DNA of 15,059 bases from Solirubrobacteraceae bacterium (lineage in GTDB: Bacteria > Actinomycetota > Thermoleophilia > Solirubrobacterales > Solirubrobacteraceae). A program made the translations under genes and the position numbers. Below, in pieces: positions 6,458 to 15,059 of the stretch (position 1 is the first letter of the stretch; each line of letters starts with the position of its first letter). Location: assembly GCA_030149625.1 (NCBI GenBank), contig JASLHP010000386.1, positions 1 through 15,059 of the forward strand. The letters are read 5' to 3'. The notes under the pieces were generated by a model that did no database searches, had not been told where the DNA came from, and saw only the letters and a list, made by a program, of their open reading frames with translations.

Positions 6458-7027
6458 GTGGGGGTGGTCGAGCACGAGGACCTCGCCGAGGCCCCGCTCG
6501 TACGCGCCGCGTCTGCGCGAGACGTCCCGGTCCTGCTGGAGCTGTTCCGGGAGCTGGCGGAGTACGAGCACCTCGAGCAGCTGGTGTGCGCGACCGAGCA
6601 GCGGCTGCACGACGCGCTGTTCGGAACGCGCCCGGCGGCCTCGGCGCTGATCGCCGAGCGCGGTTCGCGGGTCGCCGGCTATGCGGTGTTCTTCCCTACG
6701 TTCTCGAGCTTCCTGGCGATCCAGGGCGTGTGGCTCGAGGACCTGTTCGTGCGTCCGGCACATCGCGGCGTCGGCGTCGGCAAGGCACTGCTCGCGGCGG
6801 TCGCAGCGCACGTGCGCGAGTCCGGCGGCGAGCGGTTGGAATGGTCGGCGCTCGACTGGAACGAGCTGGCGCTCGGCTTCTACCGGCGTATCGGCGCGCA
6901 GACGATGACCGAGTGGATCACGCACCGGCTCGTGGGTGAGGAGCTCGAGCGGTTGGCCAGCGAAGCGACTGGCGGAAGACCGTCGAGTCGGTCGACGGCA
7001 GGCGCCTTGCCTCGTAGGCGCGAGTAG
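6458..7027 (+). CDS. GNAT-family N-acetyltransferase, diamine/thialysine acetyltransferase-like
   Basis: This 189-residue acetyl-CoA-dependent N-acetyltransferase resembles the spermidine/spermine (SSAT) and thialysine acetyltransferases. The family pattern is clear: an LFRELAEYEHLE helix near the N-terminus, then FSSFLAIQGVWLEDLFVRP and the acetyl-CoA pyrophosphate loop RGVGVGKALL (103-112). The C-terminal part is WSALDWNELALGFYRRIGA, with a conserved Asn and Tyr. A small amine such as a polyamine or a lysine analogue is the likely substrate by family, but this is not proven. The start is GTG 6458; GTG 6464 is in frame and equally possible. The last 25 residues are Ser/Arg-rich and probably disordered. 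It follows pyrE by 5 bp and precedes the tRNA gene by 21 bp. Confidence 0.88.
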   Translation: MGVVEHEDLAEAPLVRAASARDVPVLLELFRELAEYEHLEQLVCATEQRLHDALFGTRPAASALIAERGSRVAGYAVFFPTFSSFLAIQGVWLEDLFVRPAHRGVGVGKALLAAVAAHVRESGGERLEWSALDWNELALGFYRRIGAQTMTEWITHRLVGEELERLASEATGGRPSSRSTAGALPRRRE

Positions 7028-7048
7028 CCTTCGCTGCTGTCGTGCGAC

Positions 7049-7120
7049 GCCCTCGTAGTCCAATGGATAAGACGACCGCCTCCTAAGCGGTAAATCCAGG
7101 TTCGACTCCTGGCGGGGGCA
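7049..7120 (+). tRNA. tRNA-Arg, anticodon CCU
   Basis: A full cloverleaf can be folded. The acceptor stem pairs 7049-7055 (GCCCTCG) with 7113-7119 (CGGGGGC), and A7120 is the discriminator base. The D arm lies at 7058-7073. The anticodon stem is ACCGC/GCGGT (7075-7079/7087-7091) with loop CTCCTAA, giving anticodon CCT at 7082-7084, which reads AGG. The T stem is CCAGG/CCTGG with loop TTCGACT (7096-7112). CCA is not encoded. The 3' 43 nt are repeated at 9115-9157, which marks this gene as an integration target. Confidence 0.96.
7078..7120 (+). repeat. Left attachment-like repeat (3' part of the tRNA-Arg gene)
   Basis: These 43 nt run from the anticodon stem to the discriminator base and match 9115-9157 at 42 of 43 positions. 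The only difference is A7093 versus G9130, in the variable loop. A tRNA 3' end duplicated on both sides of accessory DNA is the classic footprint of site-specific integration by a tyrosine recombinase. The copy next to the intact 5' half would have been brought in by the element. Confidence 0.85.
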
Positions 7121-7137
7121 TTTGGAGAAGTCACATT

Positions 7138-7488
7138 TTGGACAGCCAGCTCGGCTGTTCTCAGATGCCGCTCTGTGGCAAGGGCTGGGGCTACCTGCTG
7201 GCGGATAGCGACGACCGCTACCGCTTAAACACCGTCGGGTTCAGCGCCATCCGGCGACGGCGATCCGTCTACTAGCCTGCGCAGCAGTTCATAACCCTGC
7301 TGGCGGGCCGACCATCAGCCTCGGTAAAGACGTGGCGCGCAGAGTTCAGAGCCATGCTCGCCGATAGTCGCCGAGGTCTCGTAGTGGCTGATGACTCCAT
7401 CAAATGCGACCTCGAGTGGTACCGAGAAACTGGACCGTGCTGCCCCAGCAAGGCGCACCTGCAGCGGCCGAACCGCCCGCAGACCTAG
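7138..7488 (+). pseudogene. Possible broken reading frame interrupted by an in-frame TAG
   Basis: A single frame runs from TTG 7138 (preceded by GGAGAAG at 7124-7130) to TAG 7486, with one in-frame TAG at 7273. The first part encodes 45 residues (MDSQLGCSQMPLCGKGWGY...). The second encodes 70 residues with a protein-like stretch (TWRAEFRAMLADSRRGLVV). I recognise neither half. It overlaps the start of the GIY-YIG-like gene in another frame, so it may be a decayed element gene, or chance. Apart from this frame I see nothing in the 283 bp between the tRNA and position 7404. Confidence 0.22.
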
Positions 7489-8315
7489 GCACCGAAGACT
7501 TCGCCTACTTCTTCATCACGGAGGACCACACACGGATCAAGATCGGCCACAGCGTCGATCCGACCGGCCGCCGCGGCGACCTGCAGACCGGCTCGCCAGA
7601 GGAGCTTGAAATCCTGCACGTGACTACAGGCGGCGAAAAGGTAGAGAAGCAGTGGCAGCGACGGTTCGCCCACCTGCGCATAGGTGCCGGCGAGGAGTGG
7701 TTCAGAGCGGACCGAGAGCTGCTCGACGCGATCGAGCGTGACCGGGAAGCGAACCCGAAAGAGGCGGAGCGCATGCTTCGCGTCGCTGAGGAGCGCCGCT
7801 GGCAGGACCGAGCCCGACGCGAGCTACGCAAAGCCGGATACGAAGGACGCTACTGTCCCGCGCAGCTCAGGGTTGGTGCCGCAGCCTACAAGTGGCGCTC
7901 CATGACCCGTCGCGCGCGGTATTTCGTGCTTCCTTGGAAAGACCCGAAGGAGCACTGCGCCATAGTGTCATTCGGCAAGCTGCTGCCGCCCCACGACGAC
8001 GATCCCGCCGAGGAACAGCTACGCGCCCGCGGCAAGGTGCCGGCTTGGACGCACTCGATCATCTTCCCCGAAGGAGAATACGGCCACGTTCCCCTAGCGC
8101 ATTTGACGCTTATCCGCGACGTCGATTTCGAGCGTGCTGCCGCTAAAGATTTCGACTACACGATCCCTGACCTGATCGCCGACCACATGCGCGACGGTCT
8201 CGACCGCTCGCTCGTCCACCACAAGCTCCTCGAGTGGTGGCGCAAGGGCTTCGCATTCGACCCTGAGCGGGAGCGTGCTCGCCTGCCACCGCCGTGGAGC
8301 GAATCAGGCGAGTAG
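7404..8315 (+). CDS. T5orf172/MUG113-type GIY-YIG-like protein with an unrecognised C-terminal half
   Basis: The 303-residue protein has a recognisable N-terminal domain (about 33-110). FAYFFI and IKIGHS (45-50) stand in for the GIY and YIG strands. RRGDLQTGSPEELEIL has the conserved Arg and the LQTGsPe motif, and the domain closes with RRFAHLR...GEEWF (86-100). This pattern is that of the bacteriophage T5 Orf172/MUG113 branch of the GIY-YIG superfamily, found in phage and mobile-element proteins and presumed to bind or cut DNA. A charged, probably helical linker follows (about 111-150). Residues ~165-303 form an unfamiliar region with WTHSIIFPEGEYGH and HHKLLEWWRKGF. ATG 7404 is the first start after an in-frame stop, but has no clear ribosome binding site; GTG codon 5 is an alternative. 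It sits alone on the plus strand of the island, converging on the DUF2283 gene. Nuclease activity is not shown. Confidence 0.78.
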   Translation: MRPRVVPRNWTVLPQQGAPAAAEPPADLGTEDFAYFFITEDHTRIKIGHSVDPTGRRGDLQTGSPEELEILHVTTGGEKVEKQWQRRFAHLRIGAGEEWFRADRELLDAIERDREANPKEAERMLRVAEERRWQDRARRELRKAGYEGRYCPAQLRVGAAAYKWRSMTRRARYFVLPWKDPKEHCAIVSFGKLLPPHDDDPAEEQLRARGKVPAWTHSIIFPEGEYGHVPLAHLTLIRDVDFERAAAKDFDYTIPDLIADHMRDGLDRSLVHHKLLEWWRKGFAFDPERERARLPPPWSESGE

Positions 8316-8381
8316 TGCGCTGGTTTTGGGCAGCGGCGGGGGCTTTCCCGAACGAGCTGGATCAGACGACTTGCGAGAGCA

Positions 8382-8654
8382 TCAGGCTACGGCCAGCTTC
8401 AGCTCGGCAGAGTCCGCCACGGTCGGCAGCTCGATCGTCAGCTTTCCCCCGTCTGCGTTCTCGAGCAGACGGCGCACATCGACGAGCGTCAGGCCGACCA
8501 GCGCTCCATCGGCGTCGTAGCTCACGGCGTGGCCCTCGGGCGTCTCATCGAAGTCCACGGCGCGTCCGGGATTGCCGGTAGCGAGATACAGCACGTCGGC
8601 CTCGGCGTCGTAGCGGACGCGATCAAAGGTGTATGGGCCGATCTGAACGCTCAT
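8382..8654 (-). CDS. DUF2283-family protein, probable antitoxin
   Basis: The 90-residue protein carries the DUF2283 pattern: an N-terminal VRYDAEADVLYLATG segment, then GHAVSYDADGALVGLTLVDVRRLL, i.e. two beta strands, an Asp-Gly turn and a helix. Proteins of this family are often encoded next to small toxin-like genes, and an antitoxin role is generally inferred from that context. The ATG overlaps the TGA of the upstream toxin-like gene (ATGA), and a strong AGGAGA lies just upstream, so it can be translated well on its own. It converges on the GIY-YIG-like gene, 66 bp away. The family assignment is from motif memory, and the role is inference. Confidence 0.75.
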   Translation of the reverse strand: MSVQIGPYTFDRVRYDAEADVLYLATGNPGRAVDFDETPEGHAVSYDADGALVGLTLVDVRRLLENADGGKLTIELPTVADSAELKLAVA

Positions 8655-8938
8655 GGCTTGCTTCTCCTGGGAAACGCCGTGCGAACTCTCCCAGTTGAGT
8701 CCTCGTCAAAGGCTACTACGACCTTGAGCCAGCGACTGGGGCCTGCGCCCTCCAGGTAGAACCAGTCTTGGCCTGGGCGTGCCTGCTCGATTCGCTCCGA
8801 TGGTTCTCGGATGGCGCGGAGCACGTCGGCTTGGTGCGCGGCCATGTAGGGGTGACCGCCAACAATGTGCTCCCACCGCTCGTCGGTCAGGTGGACCGTG
8901 CGCCCAAGGGGATCAGCGACCGAATTGATCGAGGGCAT
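8651..8938 (-). CDS. Small PBECR/RelE-like nuclease candidate, probable toxin
   Basis: This is a 95-residue basic protein. It matches, as far as I can judge by eye, the barnase-EndoU-ColicinE5/D-RelE-like (PBECR) fold pattern. An N-terminal helix has LTDERWEHIVGGHP (17-30, with His24 and His29), and a second helix reads ADVLRAIREPSERIEQ. Beta strands follow, DWFYLE and RWLKVVVAFDED (70-80), then the C-terminal strand RVRTAFPRR (84-92) with Thr87. His, Lys, Arg and Thr are the sort of residues used by metal-independent RNases. It is first in a two-gene unit whose stop overlaps the DUF2283 start. The ATG at 8938 has no clear ribosome binding site. An RNase toxin is the leading hypothesis, and DUF4258-like toxins are a related alternative. 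Confidence 0.65.
   Translation of the reverse strand: MPSINSVADPLGRTVHLTDERWEHIVGGHPYMAAHQADVLRAIREPSERIEQARPGQDWFYLEGAGPSRWLKVVVAFDEDSTGRVRTAFPRRSKP
8663..8668 (-). promoter_or_regulatory. Strong ribosome binding site of the DUF2283 gene
   Basis: On the minus strand AGGAGA (within AGGAGAAG) lies 8 nt before the ATG at 8654, inside the end of the toxin-like gene. The toxin-like gene has no comparable site. That would favour more antitoxin than toxin from one message. Confidence 0.6.
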
Positions 8939-8976
8939 CAGGCGGCAGACTACTCGAGTCCTGCGATCCTCTATTC

Positions 8977-9009
8977 GTTTGGGCAGCAGCCCGATTCCGC
9001 TGCCCAAAC
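8977..9009. promoter_or_regulatory. Perfect 11-bp inverted repeat upstream of the toxin-antitoxin pair
   Basis: The arms GTTTGGGCAGC (8977-8987) and GCTGCCCAAAC (8999-9009) are exact inverted copies around an 11-nt spacer, 39-71 bp upstream of the toxin-like ATG. TTGGGC recurs just upstream on the minus strand near 9029 and 9062. A second imperfect palindrome centred on CTCGAG (about 8947-8964) sits nearer the gene. The position suits an operator for an autoregulated pair. A terminator is less likely because there is no T-run. Confidence 0.4.
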
Positions 9010-9114
9010 CCCGCCGAATCGAGCCCAATCCCGCCTGATCCAAGGTCGTCTCAGATAGCCCAAAACGCTTGCAGTTGCGCCCAGATGCTGCCTTTCTGGC
9101 GACCGCCTGGGCCA

Positions 9115-9157
9115 GCCTCCTAAGCGGTAGATCCAGGTTCGACTCCTGGCGGGGGCA
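9115..9157 (+). repeat. Right attachment-like repeat (displaced 3' end of tRNA-Arg)
   Basis: This is a 43-nt copy of tRNA-Arg positions 7078-7120 with G instead of A at 9130. It lacks the 5' half of the tRNA and cannot encode a functional tRNA. It marks the right end of the island, 20 bp before the end of the BI-1-family gene. If integration was canonical, this copy is the original chromosomal 3' end. Confidence 0.85.
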
Positions 9158-9177
9158 CTCTCGCTTGTCCCTCGCGG

Positions 9178-9840
9178 CTAGTTGCGCCCGCCGCCGAACA
9201 GCCGCAAGAAGAACAGGAAGATGTTGACGACGTCGAGGAAGATCCCGGCGGCGAGCGGCACCGCTTCTTCCATGCCCGCGCGTCGCATCCTGTTGAAGTC
9301 GAGCACGGTGTAGGCGCCGAAGATGCCGAGGCCGAGCAGCGCGTAGATGACGTTGCCGCCGGGGATCGAAACGAACACCGTCACCAGACCGAACACGATC
9401 AGCGCGAGCAACGCGAAGAACAGCATCCGGTAGCCCCCGGAGAGGTCCCGGCGGATCGCGTAGCCGACGCTGCCGAGTCCGCCGACGAACAGCGCGGTCG
9501 CGGCCGCCGCCTGCCAGACCGCGTCGGGCTCGGCTTCGGCGTAGCGATCCAGCACGCCGCCCATGCCGAGCCCAAGGAGCAGCCCGGCCGCGAACAGCAG
9601 CGTGATCGAGAGCGCCTCCGAGCGCCGCGCGATGTTCAGCCCGAGGATGCACACGAAGCCGCCGATGAAGCAGACGATCGACGGGCCCTCGCCGATTTCG
9701 CGGCCAATGTAGGAGCCGAGCGCGTAAAAGCAGAGCGTGACCGCGACGAGTCCCATCACCTGGCCGAAGACGCCGGCTGTGCCGACTGTCTCGACGGTGC
9801 CGAACATCCCTTCGTCTCTGTAACCCGTCAGCTGCGGCAT
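9178..9840 (-). CDS. Bax inhibitor-1/YccA family membrane protein
   Basis: This 220-residue multi-pass protein has about seven hydrophobic segments and the BI-1 (UPF0005, YbhL/YccA) signature. It begins with MGLVAVTLCFYALGSYIG and ends with LGIFGAYTVLDFNRMRRAG, followed by AAGIFLDVVNIFLFFLRLFGG. The conserved C-terminal Asp in YTVLDFNRM, and the D of LDVVNIFLF, match the di-aspartyl pH-sensing pair described for bacterial YetJ. Family members behave as calcium-leak channels or modulators of membrane stress; the role here is not known. The ATG at 9840 was chosen on family length, as no strong ribosome binding site is visible. ATG 12 codons later is an alternative. It faces away from the lipoprotein gene across a 124-bp gap. 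Confidence 0.92.
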   Translation of the reverse strand: MPQLTGYRDEGMFGTVETVGTAGVFGQVMGLVAVTLCFYALGSYIGREIGEGPSIVCFIGGFVCILGLNIARRSEALSITLLFAAGLLLGLGMGGVLDRYAEAEPDAVWQAAAATALFVGGLGSVGYAIRRDLSGGYRMLFFALLALIVFGLVTVFVSIPGGNVIYALLGLGIFGAYTVLDFNRMRRAGMEEAVPLAAGIFLDVVNIFLFFLRLFGGGRN

Positions 9841-10418: not shown

Positions 10419-11066
10419 TCAGCCCGCCGCGGTTCCGTCGTCGTGCTCGTCCTCGTCCTCGTCGTAGAGCGACTCGCGCGCGAGCTCCTTCCCGCGGCCG
10501 TCGAACAGCTTGATGTCCAGTAGGTCGTGACGGTAGTCGTCCGGGGCGATCAGCGTGAAGCGCTCCTCGACCAGCGCGCACTGATCGACCGCCAGGTCGG
10601 CGAGCTCGGCGGTGACGATCCGGCCTCCGGAGATCAGCGGGCGCCCCCACACGAGCGTCATCGTCGCGCTCGCCGCCGACTCGCCGCGCCAGGTGCCGAT
10701 GATCTCGTCGCACAGGTCGAGCTCCCAATCGGGATTGCGCTCGGCGGTCTCGTCGGTGAAGTCGACGTGGGCGGCGAAGTCGCTTGGCTCCTCGCCTTCG
10801 CCGCCCGCGATGAAGCGCACATAGCCGAACAGCTCATACCCGGTCGACGTCAGCGTCGTGCCCGGCACGTAGGTGTGTCCGTGCCACGTTCGGTCCGGGT
10901 ACCACACGATCGTCCCCGGCCCGCCCAGATCCTGGCCTTCCGCATCGAGACGCAGCGCCGCTCCCAAGAACTCCTGGCACAGCCGCTCCTCCCAGCGCCC
11001 GTAGGGCAGCTCCTCCTGGGGAGGCTCGGCGGCGAAGCGGGGGACGAAACGTTGCTCGGGAGGCAT
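10419..11066 (-). CDS. Uncharacterised acidic protein
   Basis: I do not recognise this 215-residue soluble protein. The middle contains aromatic-rich stretches, GTIVWYPDRTWHGHTYVPG and TGYELFGYVRF (about residues 52-85). An LDLCDEIIGTWRGE motif and a strand-rich second half (MTLVWGRPLISGGRIVTAEL) follow. It ends in an acidic tail (YDEDEDEHDD). There is no signal peptide or membrane segment, so it is probably cytoplasmic. ATG 11066 is preceded by a plausible AGGCTGG. It lies 38 bp after galT on the same strand and is probably the last gene of the tlpA-like/galT operon. It could be a beta-barrel or lipocalin-like fold, but that is a guess. Confidence 0.75.
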   Translation of the reverse strand: MPPEQRFVPRFAAEPPQEELPYGRWEERLCQEFLGAALRLDAEGQDLGGPGTIVWYPDRTWHGHTYVPGTTLTSTGYELFGYVRFIAGGEGEEPSDFAAHVDFTDETAERNPDWELDLCDEIIGTWRGESAASATMTLVWGRPLISGGRIVTAELADLAVDQCALVEERFTLIAPDDYRHDLLDIKLFDGRGKELARESLYDEDEDEHDDGTAAG

Positions 11067-11104
11067 CGCTGCAGCCAGCCTAGCCGGCCGCTGCGCGCCG
11101 CGGC

Positions 11105-12121
11105 TCACGCATCGCGCAGCACGCTCGCGGCGTGCTCCGGCGCGACGATGTTGAGGTTGACGTCGGTCGAGAGCTCGAGGCCGGCGAGATGCGTCAGACG
11201 CGGCAGCACGTCGATTCGCCAGCAGAAGTCCTCGGCTCCGCGCGGAGCGGTGCGCACCCACAGGTTCAGCGGCGGGCTGGAGCCGAGGTGGCGCGCGAGG
11301 CGGCGCAGCCCGTCGTGCAGCAGCGCGGCGCCCGTCGGGCCGTCGTCCTCGAAGCGGGCGCGCGGCCTGCGCGGCGCGAGCATCAGCTGGAACGGCAGGC
11401 GCGAGGCGTACGGCGCGATCAGCACGGCCTCCTCGTCGATCGCCACGACCCGCTCGCGCCGGCGCACCTCCTCGGCGACGAGATCGCCCAGCAGGCTCTG
11501 GCCCATCGTACGTGTCGTATACGCGCTCGCGCGCTCGCGCTCACGCGCGACAGCCGCGGGCACGAAATCGAGCGCGTACAGCTGCGCGTGCGTGTGCGGC
11601 AGCGACGCGCCGGCCTCGCGGCGCTCATTGACGATCAGTTGCAGGTAGGCGCTGCCGGCGTGCGCGCGCATTCGCTCGCGCCACGTCGCTACCGCGGCCA
11701 CGACCTGCTCGAGTGGCAGCTCCGCGAGCGACAGCACCGGCTGCGGGCCGTTGACGATCACCTCGTGCGCGCCGGTCGCCGGCTGCGAGGCGAACAGCTC
11801 GGGTGCTCCGCGTACTTCCGACGGCGCGGGCAACGGTGCGGCCGAGCTGCCGTTTTCCTGGGAGGGCGTCAGCGCGGGATAGAGGTTCGGTACGACGCGC
11901 ACCGTCCAGCCGGGTGAGTCGGCCGGGCCACCGGCCGGGCGCAGCGCGTAGAGCTCGGGCGGCGTGCGCTCCTCGTGACCCTCGGCAAACGGATCCTTCT
12001 CGGGATCGATCGGCTCGGGTGGCTCGCAGCGCGGCTCGCCCCCGGGGCGACGCGAGCGCTCGCCGGCGACGATCGTGCGGTGCCCGCTCAGCGGGTCGAT
12101 GCGCAACTCTCGCAAGGTCAC
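11105..12121 (-). CDS. galT: Galactose-1-phosphate uridylyltransferase-like protein
   Basis: The family exchanges UMP between UDP-glucose and galactose 1-phosphate in the Leloir pathway, through a uridylylated histidine. This 338-residue protein has the HIT-superfamily active-site motif ASLPHTHAQL with His176 and His178 (HxH). It also has the family's RVVPNLYPAL and GAHEVIVNGP segments, and an FCWRIDVLPRLT motif near the C-terminus. The N-terminal segment that usually reads CPFCxGxExxTPPE is DPFAEGHEERTPPE here (43-56), so both zinc cysteines are replaced by Asp43 and Ala46. The start GTG overlaps the TGA of the TlpA-like gene, which implies coupled translation. No galK or galE is nearby. A nucleotidyltransferase with another sugar phosphate is a possible alternative. 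Confidence 0.85.
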   Translation of the reverse strand: MTLRELRIDPLSGHRTIVAGERSRRPGGEPRCEPPEPIDPEKDPFAEGHEERTPPELYALRPAGGPADSPGWTVRVVPNLYPALTPSQENGSSAAPLPAPSEVRGAPELFASQPATGAHEVIVNGPQPVLSLAELPLEQVVAAVATWRERMRAHAGSAYLQLIVNERREAGASLPHTHAQLYALDFVPAAVARERERASAYTTRTMGQSLLGDLVAEEVRRRERVVAIDEEAVLIAPYASRLPFQLMLAPRRPRARFEDDGPTGAALLHDGLRRLARHLGSSPPLNLWVRTAPRGAEDFCWRIDVLPRLTHLAGLELSTDVNLNIVAPEHAASVLRDA

Positions 12122-12881: not shown

Positions 12882-15059
12882 ATGGCCGAGTCCACCTCAG
12901 TGGCCCTCGCGGCCGCGACCATTCCCAGCTCCGCCGACATAGCTCGCGCGGAAAAATTCGTGCGCGAGCGCTTCGTGCACGCGGGCGAGGATGCCGCTGT
13001 CGCGCTCGCGTCGGGAACTCCCCGCCGGCGCGCGCTGGACCGTGCGCTCGATGAGCTGGAGGCCGATCCGAAGACGAAAAACCCCTCGACGGCGTGGCGG
13101 CGCGAGTTCTCGCTGCTGCTCGGTCTCGAGCGGCTGCTCTCCGACGAGGAGCCGAAGCTGGAGGACGGGACGGTGCTTTCGGCGCACCAAGTCGACGCGC
13201 TCTCGGGCACGCTCACGGCGCTGCTGGCCGAGGCGCAGCGCAGCGCCGACGGCAACGGCCGCGCGCTCGCGTCTGCGTCGCCGGAGCTGCTTGCCTCGGC
13301 GGACATCCTCGGGCCCGACGGAGCGAGCGATGGCCCCGCCCGTGCCGACGCCGCCGAGGTCGAGGGCGTCGACGAGGACGAGGAGGACGACGAGCTCGAC
13401 GAGGACGAGGACGAGGACGACGAGGACGACGAGCTCGGGCCAGTACAGCGCGCCGCGCCCGACGACGACGAGGACGAGGACGAGGACGACGAGCTCGAGG
13501 AGGAGCCGGACGAGGAGCAGGAGGACGAGCTCGAGCAGGAGGACGAGCTCGAGCAGGAGAGCGACCCTGAGGAGGAGCCGCGCGACTGGGTCGACGAGGG
13601 CGAGGGCGAGGAGGAGTCGCTCGCGGACCAGCCCGAGGACCCGAATGCCGCCAAGCGCTTCTGGTTCGAGCACGCGACCGGCGCCGGCAAGACCGTCGCG
13701 GCGCTCGGCTTCGTGGAGGCTTCGCACACAGGCGGCGTGCTGATCCTCACGCACCGGCGCAACCTCGTCGACCAATTCCTGGGCGAGCTGCGCGATCGCG
13801 GCTATTCCAAGCGCATCAGCCGGCCGCTCTTGAAAGGCGAGGATTCGGTCAAGGGTCCGGTGACCGTGGAGACCTACCAGTGGTTCGTGCGCAACGCGGG
13901 CAAGATCTCCAGCGCGTACACGATCGTCATCTGCGACGAGGCGCACACGGCGCTCGGCGAGAAGACGAGCGGCGCGATTCGCGAGTGGACAGGCCCGATC
14001 TTCATCGGCATGACGGCGACAGGCGCGCTGATCGCGCGTCATGTCACCGATCTGTTCCCGACGCAGACCTCGCGCTTCGACCTAGCTCAAGCGGCGCGCC
14101 GCGGCGTGATCGCGCCGCTGCGCTGCGTACGCATCTCGCCTGGCGTCGGCGTGCGTACGATCGCGAAGGTGCCGCTGCGCCGGGGCGAGGTCGACACGGA
14201 GTTCGACCAGGACGAGCTCGCGAAACTGCTCGACCAGCAGCCCTTCAACCTCGCCGTGGCGAACCTCTACAAGACGCGCTTCAACGGCGTTCCCGGTGTC
14301 GTGTACGCGGCGGGCGTGCGCCACGCCTACAACCTCGCGGAAGCGTTCCGCGCGGAGGGCATCAAGGCGGAAGGCGTCTCCGGCGAGACGCCCAAGCGCG
14401 AGCTGGTGGAGATCCTCGCACGCTACGAGCGCGGTGACATCGACGTGCTGATCAACGCGCAGCTGTTGGCGGAGGGCTGGAACAGCCCGCGCGCGACCGT
14501 GTGCGTGCACCTGGCGCCGACGGCGTCCAAGCGCATCTACCAGCAGCGTGTCGGACGCGTCACGCGCCGCCACCCGGGCAAGGAGGCGGGGCTCGTCGTC
14601 GATTTCGTGCATCCGGCGACCAAGCACGACGACCCGGTCGTGACGCTGCACTCCCTGCTCGACAGAGACGTCTACAGAGGCGGAGCGATCGTGGTCGGTC
14701 CCGTGCGCCGCGGTCGCGGGCGCCGGATGCGCGTGGAGCGCCGCGTGCTGCCGGTGTGCGCGGAGGAGGAGCGGCGCTTTCAGGTGTTCGAGCGCGAGCT
14801 GTGGCGCATCGCGGTCGAGCACCTCGACTATGGCGAGCAGCACCTGTGGGCGGCGCTGGCGGGCGCGCGGGTGGCGCCCAACGGCTGGCGCCGGGCGCGC
14901 GCGATGCTGCACTTCGATCGCACCGGCGAGCTCAAGAGCCGCTTTCTGCTCACGGCCGTCAAGCGCAACAAGAACTCGCAACTGCGGCTGCGCGCGCTGA
15001 CGGACCTGGCGGCGCTGCGTGACCCCGACGCGTTCGACGAGGCGATCGACATCATCGGC
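12882..15059 (+). CDS. DEAH-box superfamily 2 helicase with a long acidic insertion, C-terminus off the window
   Basis: The 726 visible residues encode an ATP-dependent nucleic-acid helicase or translocase. The N-terminal ~150 residues are helical and include a SAHQVDAL segment (Gln103) resembling the motif-0 region. Residues about 159-250 are almost entirely Asp and Glu with short repeats such as EDELEQ. RecA domain 1 then has ATGAGKT (265-271), CDEAH (351-355) and MTATG. RecA domain 2 has LAEGWNSPRAT and the arginine-finger motif QQRVGRVTR (554-562). A basic segment and a C-terminal domain of about 140 residues follow, open at the window edge. ATG 12882 has no ribosome binding site, so a leaderless or differently placed start is possible. 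The family is secure, but the substrate (RNA, DNA or repair fork) is not known. Confidence 0.9.
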   Translation, partial: MAESTSVALAAATIPSSADIARAEKFVRERFVHAGEDAAVALASGTPRRRALDRALDELEADPKTKNPSTAWRREFSLLLGLERLLSDEEPKLEDGTVLSAHQVDALSGTLTALLAEAQRSADGNGRALASASPELLASADILGPDGASDGPARADAAEVEGVDEDEEDDELDEDEDEDDEDDELGPVQRAAPDDDEDEDEDDELEEEPDEEQEDELEQEDELEQESDPEEEPRDWVDEGEGEEESLADQPEDPNAAKRFWFEHATGAGKTVAALGFVEASHTGGVLILTHRRNLVDQFLGELRDRGYSKRISRPLLKGEDSVKGPVTVETYQWFVRNAGKISSAYTIVICDEAHTALGEKTSGAIREWTGPIFIGMTATGALIARHVTDLFPTQTSRFDLAQAARRGVIAPLRCVRISPGVGVRTIAKVPLRRGEVDTEFDQDELAKLLDQQPFNLAVANLYKTRFNGVPGVVYAAGVRHAYNLAEAFRAEGIKAEGVSGETPKRELVEILARYERGDIDVLINAQLLAEGWNSPRATVCVHLAPTASKRIYQQRVGRVTRRHPGKEAGLVVDFVHPATKHDDPVVTLHSLLDRDVYRGGAIVVGPVRRGRGRRMRVERRVLPVCAEEERRFQVFERELWRIAVEHLDYGEQHLWAALAGARVAPNGWRRARAMLHFDRTGELKSRFLLTAVKRNKNSQLRLRALTDLAALRDPDAFDEAIDIIG
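13356..13635 (+). repeat. GAG/GAC-rich coding repeat tract
   Basis: The acidic part of the helicase is built from runs of GAG and GAC codons. It includes an exact tandem copy of an 18-nt unit (encoding EDELEQ, about 13529-13558) and two longer related blocks ending in GACGACGAGCTC. Such DNA is prone to slippage, so the tract length may vary between strains. Confidence 0.7.

What the first reader, a model, noticed from the sequence alone, without database searches (positions are those of the whole stretch)
7049..9157. A 2-kb island lodged in tRNA-Arg(CCU), bounded by a 43-nt direct repeat, with no recombinase
Seen: an intact tRNA-Arg and, 2037 bp later, its last 43 nt repeated with one mismatch. 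Known: tyrosine-recombinase elements insert at tRNA 3' ends and leave this footprint. Inferred: the cargo is only a GIY-YIG-like protein and a toxin-antitoxin-like pair, so this would be a minimal passenger element moved in trans, or a deleted remnant held in place by an addiction pair. Removing one repeat leaves the tRNA 20 bp from the BI-1-family stop.
Basis: partly seen in the sequence, partly recalled or inferred. Interest (0 to 1): 0.7.

Follow-up and report, generated by a model that had tools for sequence, protein, structure and literature searches.

The report
Stripped-down tRNA island with toxin pair
A two-kilobase piece of once-mobile DNA sits at the end of a transfer-RNA gene in a bacterium; it has lost its own integration enzyme but keeps one well-preserved attachment end and a toxin-antitoxin-like gene pair, and similar leftovers sit at transfer-RNA genes in its relatives.

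Summary
In detail: tRNA-Arg(CCU) at 7049-7120, its last 43 nt repeated at 9115-9157 (42/43), no recombinase between. It is a real tRNA-integrated element. A profile of the right ends of congeneric units, trained without the window, picks out window 9025-9103 (E 8.6e-7); 22 nt are identical to, and equally far (92 nt) from the core in, a 10.7-kb integrase-bearing element at the same tRNA in a close relative. The right end carries a covarying hairpin and ATC repeats 10 nt apart; 14 of 22 non-training copies of this module in 24 congeners lie before a tRNA half. The left end is damaged: no recognisable arm, no integrase, and the GIY-YIG gene has lost its N-terminus and frame. The remaining pair is a RelE-fold (PBECR2-like) protein plus DUF2283, coupled in 29 of 30 related loci; in 9 of 33 it lies directly downstream of a tyrosine integrase or a piece of one. 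Best reading: a decayed genomic island (CIME-like), one end intact, probably kept by its toxin-antitoxin pair, in a genus where such units accrete in tandem. Trans-mobilisation is not excluded. The window's own genome is not held, so helper integrase and excision could not be tested.

The parts
7049..7120 (+). tRNA-Arg(CCU), intact; the insertion target
   Evidence: ARAGORN; Rfam
7078..7120 (+). left attachment core (anticodon stem-loop to 3' end), inside the intact tRNA
7121..7287 (+). left end of the unit: no recognisable left arm, no DNA relative in 1.87 Mb of fetched loci; lies where the GIY-YIG N-terminus would be expected
7288..8315 (+). broken GIY-YIG-type (MUG113/T5orf172) gene; open frame 7404-8315 (303 aa); relatives of 325-419 aa; homology resumes at 7288 (weak, P0004-P0007) or 7369 (P0001-P0003) in another frame, frame change near 7428-7450
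8382..8654 (-). DUF2283 protein, putative antitoxin
   Evidence: PF10049; adjacency 29 of 30 loci
8654..8938 (-). PBECR2-like, RelE-fold small protein, putative RNase toxin
   Evidence: active-site pattern
8975..9050 (+). right-end module: inverted repeat 8977-8987/8999-9009 and three ATC repeats at 9018, 9028, 9038 (10-nt spacing)
9023..9103 (+). right arm: 9025-9103 found by a profile trained on other units' right ends; 9023-9044 identical to the G021 element
9115..9157 (+). right attachment core: displaced 3' end of tRNA-Arg(CCU), 42/43

Best explanation
This is a decayed genomic island. A tyrosine-recombinase element inserted at the anticodon loop of tRNA-Arg(CCU); the inserted copy of the tRNA 3' end restored the gene and the old 3' end was displaced to 9115-9157 (the copies and the related element are shown; the event is inferred). 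Its left part, where the related G021 element carries its integrase, was later lost or scrambled together with the left arm and the start of the GIY-YIG gene (absence of these parts is shown; that one event removed them is inferred). The right attachment end stayed intact: a hairpin, three phased ATC repeats and a further arm before the core, which I take to be the DNA to which integrase and its helper proteins bind (inferred). The RelE-fold/DUF2283 pair most likely acts as a type II toxin-antitoxin addiction module that penalises loss of the remnant (fold and gene coupling shown; toxicity, neutralisation and stabilisation inferred). Without an integrase the unit should be fixed unless a related integrase in the cell acts in trans, or a new element inserts at one of its cores and carries it along (inferred).
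Confidence: 0.68

Rival explanations
1. A live non-autonomous passenger: a small cassette with attachment ends and an addiction pair, moved by an integrase encoded elsewhere in the cell, as one of many integrase-less units in the genus.
For: The right-end module of the window scores 91.2 bits and that of the integrase-bearing G021 element 91.5, though both are training members of the model. Of 31 modules examined 5 have any integrase of this family within 10 kb upstream, two of them full length; of the 18 with at least 9 kb held, 13 have none. Units of 1.5-3.2 kb bounded by cores in one direction and without integrase in G156, G167, G162. Cargo differs from unit to unit while the right end stays alike.
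Against: Left arm not recognisable in the window and GIY-YIG gene damaged on that side. The one unit searched at DNA level across congeners (G156, DUF4143) was matched elsewhere only over its coding part, without its ends. Upstream room was under 9 kb for 13 of the 31 modules, and other integrase families were not counted.
Confidence: 0.22
2. A fixed piece of a larger composite array: successive insertions at the tRNA, with BI-1 and other genes up to 10419 also imported, the 2-kb unit being only the tRNA-proximal layer.
For: What lies between the tRNA and X10419 differs among the congeners where both are held, and none of the fetched loci has BI-1 there. Congeners G156, G117 and G125 show stacked units.
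Against: No third core copy between 9157 and 10419 in the window at 30 of 43 matches or more. BI-1 has relatives in 37 of 101 related genomes, so it is an ordinary gene of the family.
Confidence: 0.08
3. Chance or assembly artefact: a tRNA fragment joined wrongly in an assembly, not a real insertion.
For: The window's assembly is not held; several congeneric contigs end at these cores, as repeats do.
Against: The right copy is preceded by a conserved attachment end with correct spacing, which a random misjoin would not give. GIY-YIG and toxin relatives at 96 and 98% identity each list 32,503 bases as their longest public contig, which suggests one contig with both.
Confidence: 0.02

Closest known systems
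CIMEs (cis-mobilizable elements), as defined in PMC7563491 (passages read)
   Same: Decayed elements that keep attachment sites but lack recombination and transfer genes; sizes 1.2-13 kb; stand in tandem with integrase-bearing elements at the 3' end of a gene, in other species also a tRNA gene.
   Different: CIMEs derive from ICEs or IMEs; the nearest element here (G021) has an integrase, but 11 of its ORFs scanned gave no relaxase or conjugation family. Only one end is recognisable in the window. A conserved hairpin plus phased-repeat end was not mentioned in the passages read.
Dehalococcoides ssrA islands, PMC3146451 (passages read)
   Same: Several tandem islands in one direction behind one RNA gene, each bounded by a copy of its 3' end, some without integration genes.
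   Different: There a serine recombinase and a 20-bp repeat in tmRNA; here tyrosine integrases and a 43-nt repeat from the anticodon loop of tRNA.
tRNA genomic islands stabilised by toxin-antitoxin pairs, e.g. CGI48 with HipAB in Shewanella, PMC8978831 (abstract and outline)
   Same: An island at a tRNA gene whose maintenance is helped by a toxin-antitoxin pair.
   Different: CGI48 is 48 kb and is excised on expression of integrase and excisionase; here a 2-kb leftover and another pair (RelE-fold/DUF2283), untested in the laboratory.
Tycheposons (named in the listing; content recalled, not read)
   Same: Small tRNA-linked elements with tyrosine recombinases, some said to be non-autonomous (recalled).
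   Different: Marine lineages (recalled); no comparison of ends was made here.

Membership tests
tRNA-integrated genomic island of the tyrosine-recombinase type | intact tRNA at one end, displaced 3' fragment at the other, direct repeat | tested here: met
tRNA-integrated genomic island of the tyrosine-recombinase type | tyrosine integrase inside the island | tested here: not met
   no hit in the unit with 14 related integrase sequences, 13 distinct; present in the G021 element at the same tRNA. Hence filed as a remnant, not as a complete island
tRNA-integrated genomic island of the tyrosine-recombinase type | attachment arms shared with an integrase-bearing relative | tested here: inconclusive
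   right end met; left end without hit
tRNA-integrated genomic island of the tyrosine-recombinase type | island-free or different occupancy in relatives | tested here: met
   G041 has 163 nt at the locus; the three genes are absent there in all loci fetched, several of them short; no exact empty site with BI-1
CIME | no recombination or transfer genes, both attachment sites kept | tested here: inconclusive
   both cores present, left arm not recognisable
CIME | derives from an ICE or IME | tested here: inconclusive
   no relaxase or conjugation family among 11 ORFs of the G021 element; parent of the window unit unknown
CIME | mobilised by accretion with a neighbouring element | not testable with these tools
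   needs excision assays
type II toxin-antitoxin pair | two small adjacent co-oriented genes, conserved as a unit | tested here: met
   29 of 30 loci; natural fusion P0132
type II toxin-antitoxin pair | toxin of a known toxin fold with a plausible active site | tested here: inconclusive
type II toxin-antitoxin pair | toxicity and neutralisation | not testable with these tools
   no experiment

The most novel reading that the evidence does not exclude
In this lineage tRNA genes carry a cassette-like system: small units with a standard right end (hairpin, three 10-nt-phased repeats, arm, tRNA core), mostly without integrase, accrete in tandem behind several tRNAs (Arg-CCU, Arg-CCG, Ala-TGC, Val-CAC), are moved in trans by a few integrase-bearing elements, and are held by integrase-coupled addiction pairs (RelE-fold/DUF2283), down to units of about 1 kb that hold the pair alone.
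Probability: 0.25. Interest if true: 0.7.

Novelty: new variant of a known kind. Interest (0 to 1): 0.5.

Why it matters
It shows how mobile islands may end: the integrase is gone, while an attachment end and an addiction pair remain. The conserved right-end module is a handle by which leftovers without any integrase gene can be found. The putative RelE-fold/DUF2283 pair, found next to tyrosine integrases, can be tested directly; no paper in the open-licence library searched contains the term DUF2283.

Tried and rejected
Led nowhere: BI-1 as a locus anchor, since it is not beside this tRNA in the relatives fetched. Phage or plasmid origin: no exact core match in viral contigs, one marginal 34-residue piece for GIY-YIG, no toxin match in phage or plasmid records, two 53-base GIY-YIG pieces in Azospirillum plasmids. 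Known defence system: no PADLOC or NCBIfam match up to E 1. GIY-YIG relatives in genomes: 0 of 101 and 0 of 232; 12 proteins found in 5.8 billion, so their setting is unknown. A solved relative of the toxin by sequence: one match at E 0.93 only. Left-arm motif in the window: best E 4.3, rejected. Integrase remnant in the window unit: none. Unit-level mobility of the G156 DUF4143 unit: coding part only matched elsewhere. Known RNA family for the hairpin: none; the three hits up to E 1 in 8930-9180 overlap the tRNA copy. Of 22 non-training module hits 8 are not at a recognisable tRNA half (7 of the 21 examined, plus G021:C35:7266, inside the G021 element). Paper searches on toxin-antitoxin islands and BECR toxins were seen as listings only, apart from the papers named above.

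Limits: control loci were placed by hand. Gene calls in fetched loci are simple ORF picks, not a gene caller; names such as galT, L,D-transpeptidase and HicA are by eye unless a Pfam call is cited. The tRNA-copy scan used a library of 66 tRNA 3' ends from the fetched loci.

Full report
Observation. ARAGORN finds one tRNA, tRNA-Arg(CCU), at 7049-7120. Its last 43 nt recur at 9115-9157 with one mismatch, 2037 bp on; chance gives about 1e-16 such matches. The repeat runs from the anticodon stem to the 3' end. The unit holds a GIY-YIG-type protein (MUG113, T5orf172), a DUF2283 protein and a small protein with a weak DUF4258 match. The BI-1 gene (PF01027) ends 20 nt after the repeat.

Kin. The window's assembly is not held. 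The closest kin by flanking genes are a genus labelled g15 (24 genomes searched). Flanking gene order is shared, in names by eye except the acetyltransferase: penicillin-binding protein, L,D-transpeptidase, phosphoribosyltransferase, acetyltransferase, tRNA-Arg(CCU), then a variable stretch, then X10419 (my label for the gene at 10419-11261), galT, thioredoxin-like gene and helicase. Most of the helicase is 96% identical in G021.

The site in relatives. A search for the tRNA gave matches in 19 of 24 congeners; 17 have the full gene and 7 have extra partial copies: G021, G117, G153, G156, G158 (24 nt), G162, G167 (a short match in G164 was dropped because it is part of another tRNA-Arg). G021 holds a 10.7-kb element at this tRNA: a tyrosine integrase about 1.1 kb from the tRNA, a helix-turn-helix protein, a nucleotidyltransferase/HEPN pair, Vsr, then the displaced core. 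G156 has three cores in a row, 1.48 and 1.54 kb apart, before X10419; G167 has two, 3.19 kb apart; G162 has five on four contigs, two of them 2.53 kb apart. G041 has 163 nt between the tRNA and X10419. None of the loci fetched has the window's GIY-YIG, DUF2283, toxin or BI-1 gene there; several of these loci end within 2 kb of the tRNA. tRNA-Arg(CCG) shows displaced copies in G125, G158, G021, G168 and G153, and tRNA-His in another genus has two stacked integrase elements (G003).

The right end. I aligned 96 nt before the partial tRNA-Arg(CCU) copies of other units and searched the window with that profile: one significant hit, 9025-9103, E 8.6e-7, the next at 2.9. Over all loci then held (209 records, 1.33 Mb) 15 distinct places scored above 11 bits; 14 lie at a tRNA-Arg copy and one at a partly deleted core in G117 that my copy scan had missed; 12 of the 15 are training members. 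Window and G021 share 22 nt exactly, both starting 92 nt before the core, and are 92% alike over 73 nt. The module is an inverted repeat followed by three ATC triplets exactly 10 nt apart, each letter shared by at least 10 of the 11 aligned sequences. The inverted repeat covaries: 88.8% of cells paired against 83.1% shuffled (0 of 500), 5 pairs changed on both sides (1 of 500); sliding the pairing gave 1 to 2. A covariance model found matches in 16 of 24 congeners at E <= 0.01, among them 22 full-length non-training hits at E <= 1e-6. I looked at 21 of the 22: 10 lie before a tRNA 3' half (nine with the T-loop 85-88 nt past the module by pattern, one by eye), 4 before a reversed tRNA-Val 5' half of 36-42 nt, 7 before neither; the one left out lies inside the G021 element. 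I read the phased repeats as integrase arm sites, by analogy with phage lambda (recalled). Of 31 modules, window included, 5 have an integrase of this family or a piece of it within 10 kb upstream, two of them full length; for 13 the held sequence upstream was under 9 kb, and of the other 18, 13 have none.

The left end. Many congeneric units have a motif (about CCCTGCAAAT or AAAGCCCTG) some 8-12 nt after the tRNA; a profile of it finds nothing significant in the window (best E 4.3). The 12 GIY-YIG relatives are 225-419 aa, eleven of them 325-419. I compared 8 of the 12 (P0001-P0007, P0012) with the window by tblastn: homology begins at 7288 (weak; residue 57 of P0006) or 7369 (residue 83 of P0001), changes frame near 7428-7450, and the residues before that have no counterpart. 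Nothing in 1.87 Mb of loci resembles 7121-7300 as DNA. The unit is damaged at the end where G021 carries its integrase.

Decay in relatives. Ten units under 5 kb with two boundaries at the two tRNA-Arg genes (window, G156 two, G167, G162, G158 three, G125, G153) were searched with 14 integrase sequences (13 distinct): 5 hold integrase fragments, 5 hold none (window, G156 two, G167, G162), none shows a full-length match.

Reading. The window holds a decayed tRNA island with one intact attachment end and a probable addiction pair. It works like a CIME (PMC7563491, passages), but membership is open, since the left arm is not recognisable and the parent is not shown to be an ICE or IME. Tandem islands behind one RNA gene are known (PMC3146451, passages), as is stabilisation of an island by a toxin-antitoxin pair (PMC8978831, abstract). 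What I did not find in print, by the searches, is any paper with the term DUF2283, or a study of such islands in Solirubrobacter or its order (one paper holds the three terms, on sialic acid; listing only); the library holds open-licence papers only. That most right ends examined lack a nearby integrase of this family, yet stay conserved, keeps a trans-acting system possible.

Noticed in passing
L223 (G168:C103) 1-1061: A 0.97-kb unit between tRNA-Leu(GAG) and a copy of its 3' part holds only the toxin-like/DUF2283 pair; an AAAGCCCTGC left-arm motif follows the tRNA; the contig ends at the copy.
   Followed up: partly
L227 (G196:C245) 799-2702: tRNA-Pro 3' copy, tyrosine integrase, toxin-like gene and DUF2283 in one overlapping row, like an operon.
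   Followed up: partly
L296, L297, L298, L299, L300 (G156): Five right-end modules before partial copies of tRNA-Ala(TGC) on five contigs of one genome: probably another tandem array.
   Followed up: no
L267, L301, L302, L308; also L193: Right-end module followed by a reversed 5' half (36-42 nt) of tRNA-Val(CAC), the full tRNA lying 3.3-8.1 kb inward where held (L301, L302, L308), and one similar case at tRNA-Ala(TGC) in L193: these elements seem to insert the other way round at the anticodon loop and to displace the 5' half.
   Followed up: partly
L064 4354-4391 and 7304-7342: The same kind of hairpin also occurs inside the G021 element, away from its end; it may have a second role such as transcription termination.
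   Followed up: no
window 9178-9840: The BI-1 family gene stands next to this tRNA in none of the loci fetched from relatives; it may itself be an import into the variable stretch.
   Followed up: partly
window about 13335-13580: A long acidic low-complexity stretch (D/E runs) inside the helicase reading frame; relatives align on either side of it.
   Followed up: no
L197 (G158:C31) 6520-8018: A 1.5-kb unit with about 140 residues of the C-terminal part of an integrase and, by eye, a HicA/HicB-like pair (no Pfam match for the HicA-like one): another remnant keeping a possible toxin-antitoxin pair.
   Followed up: partly
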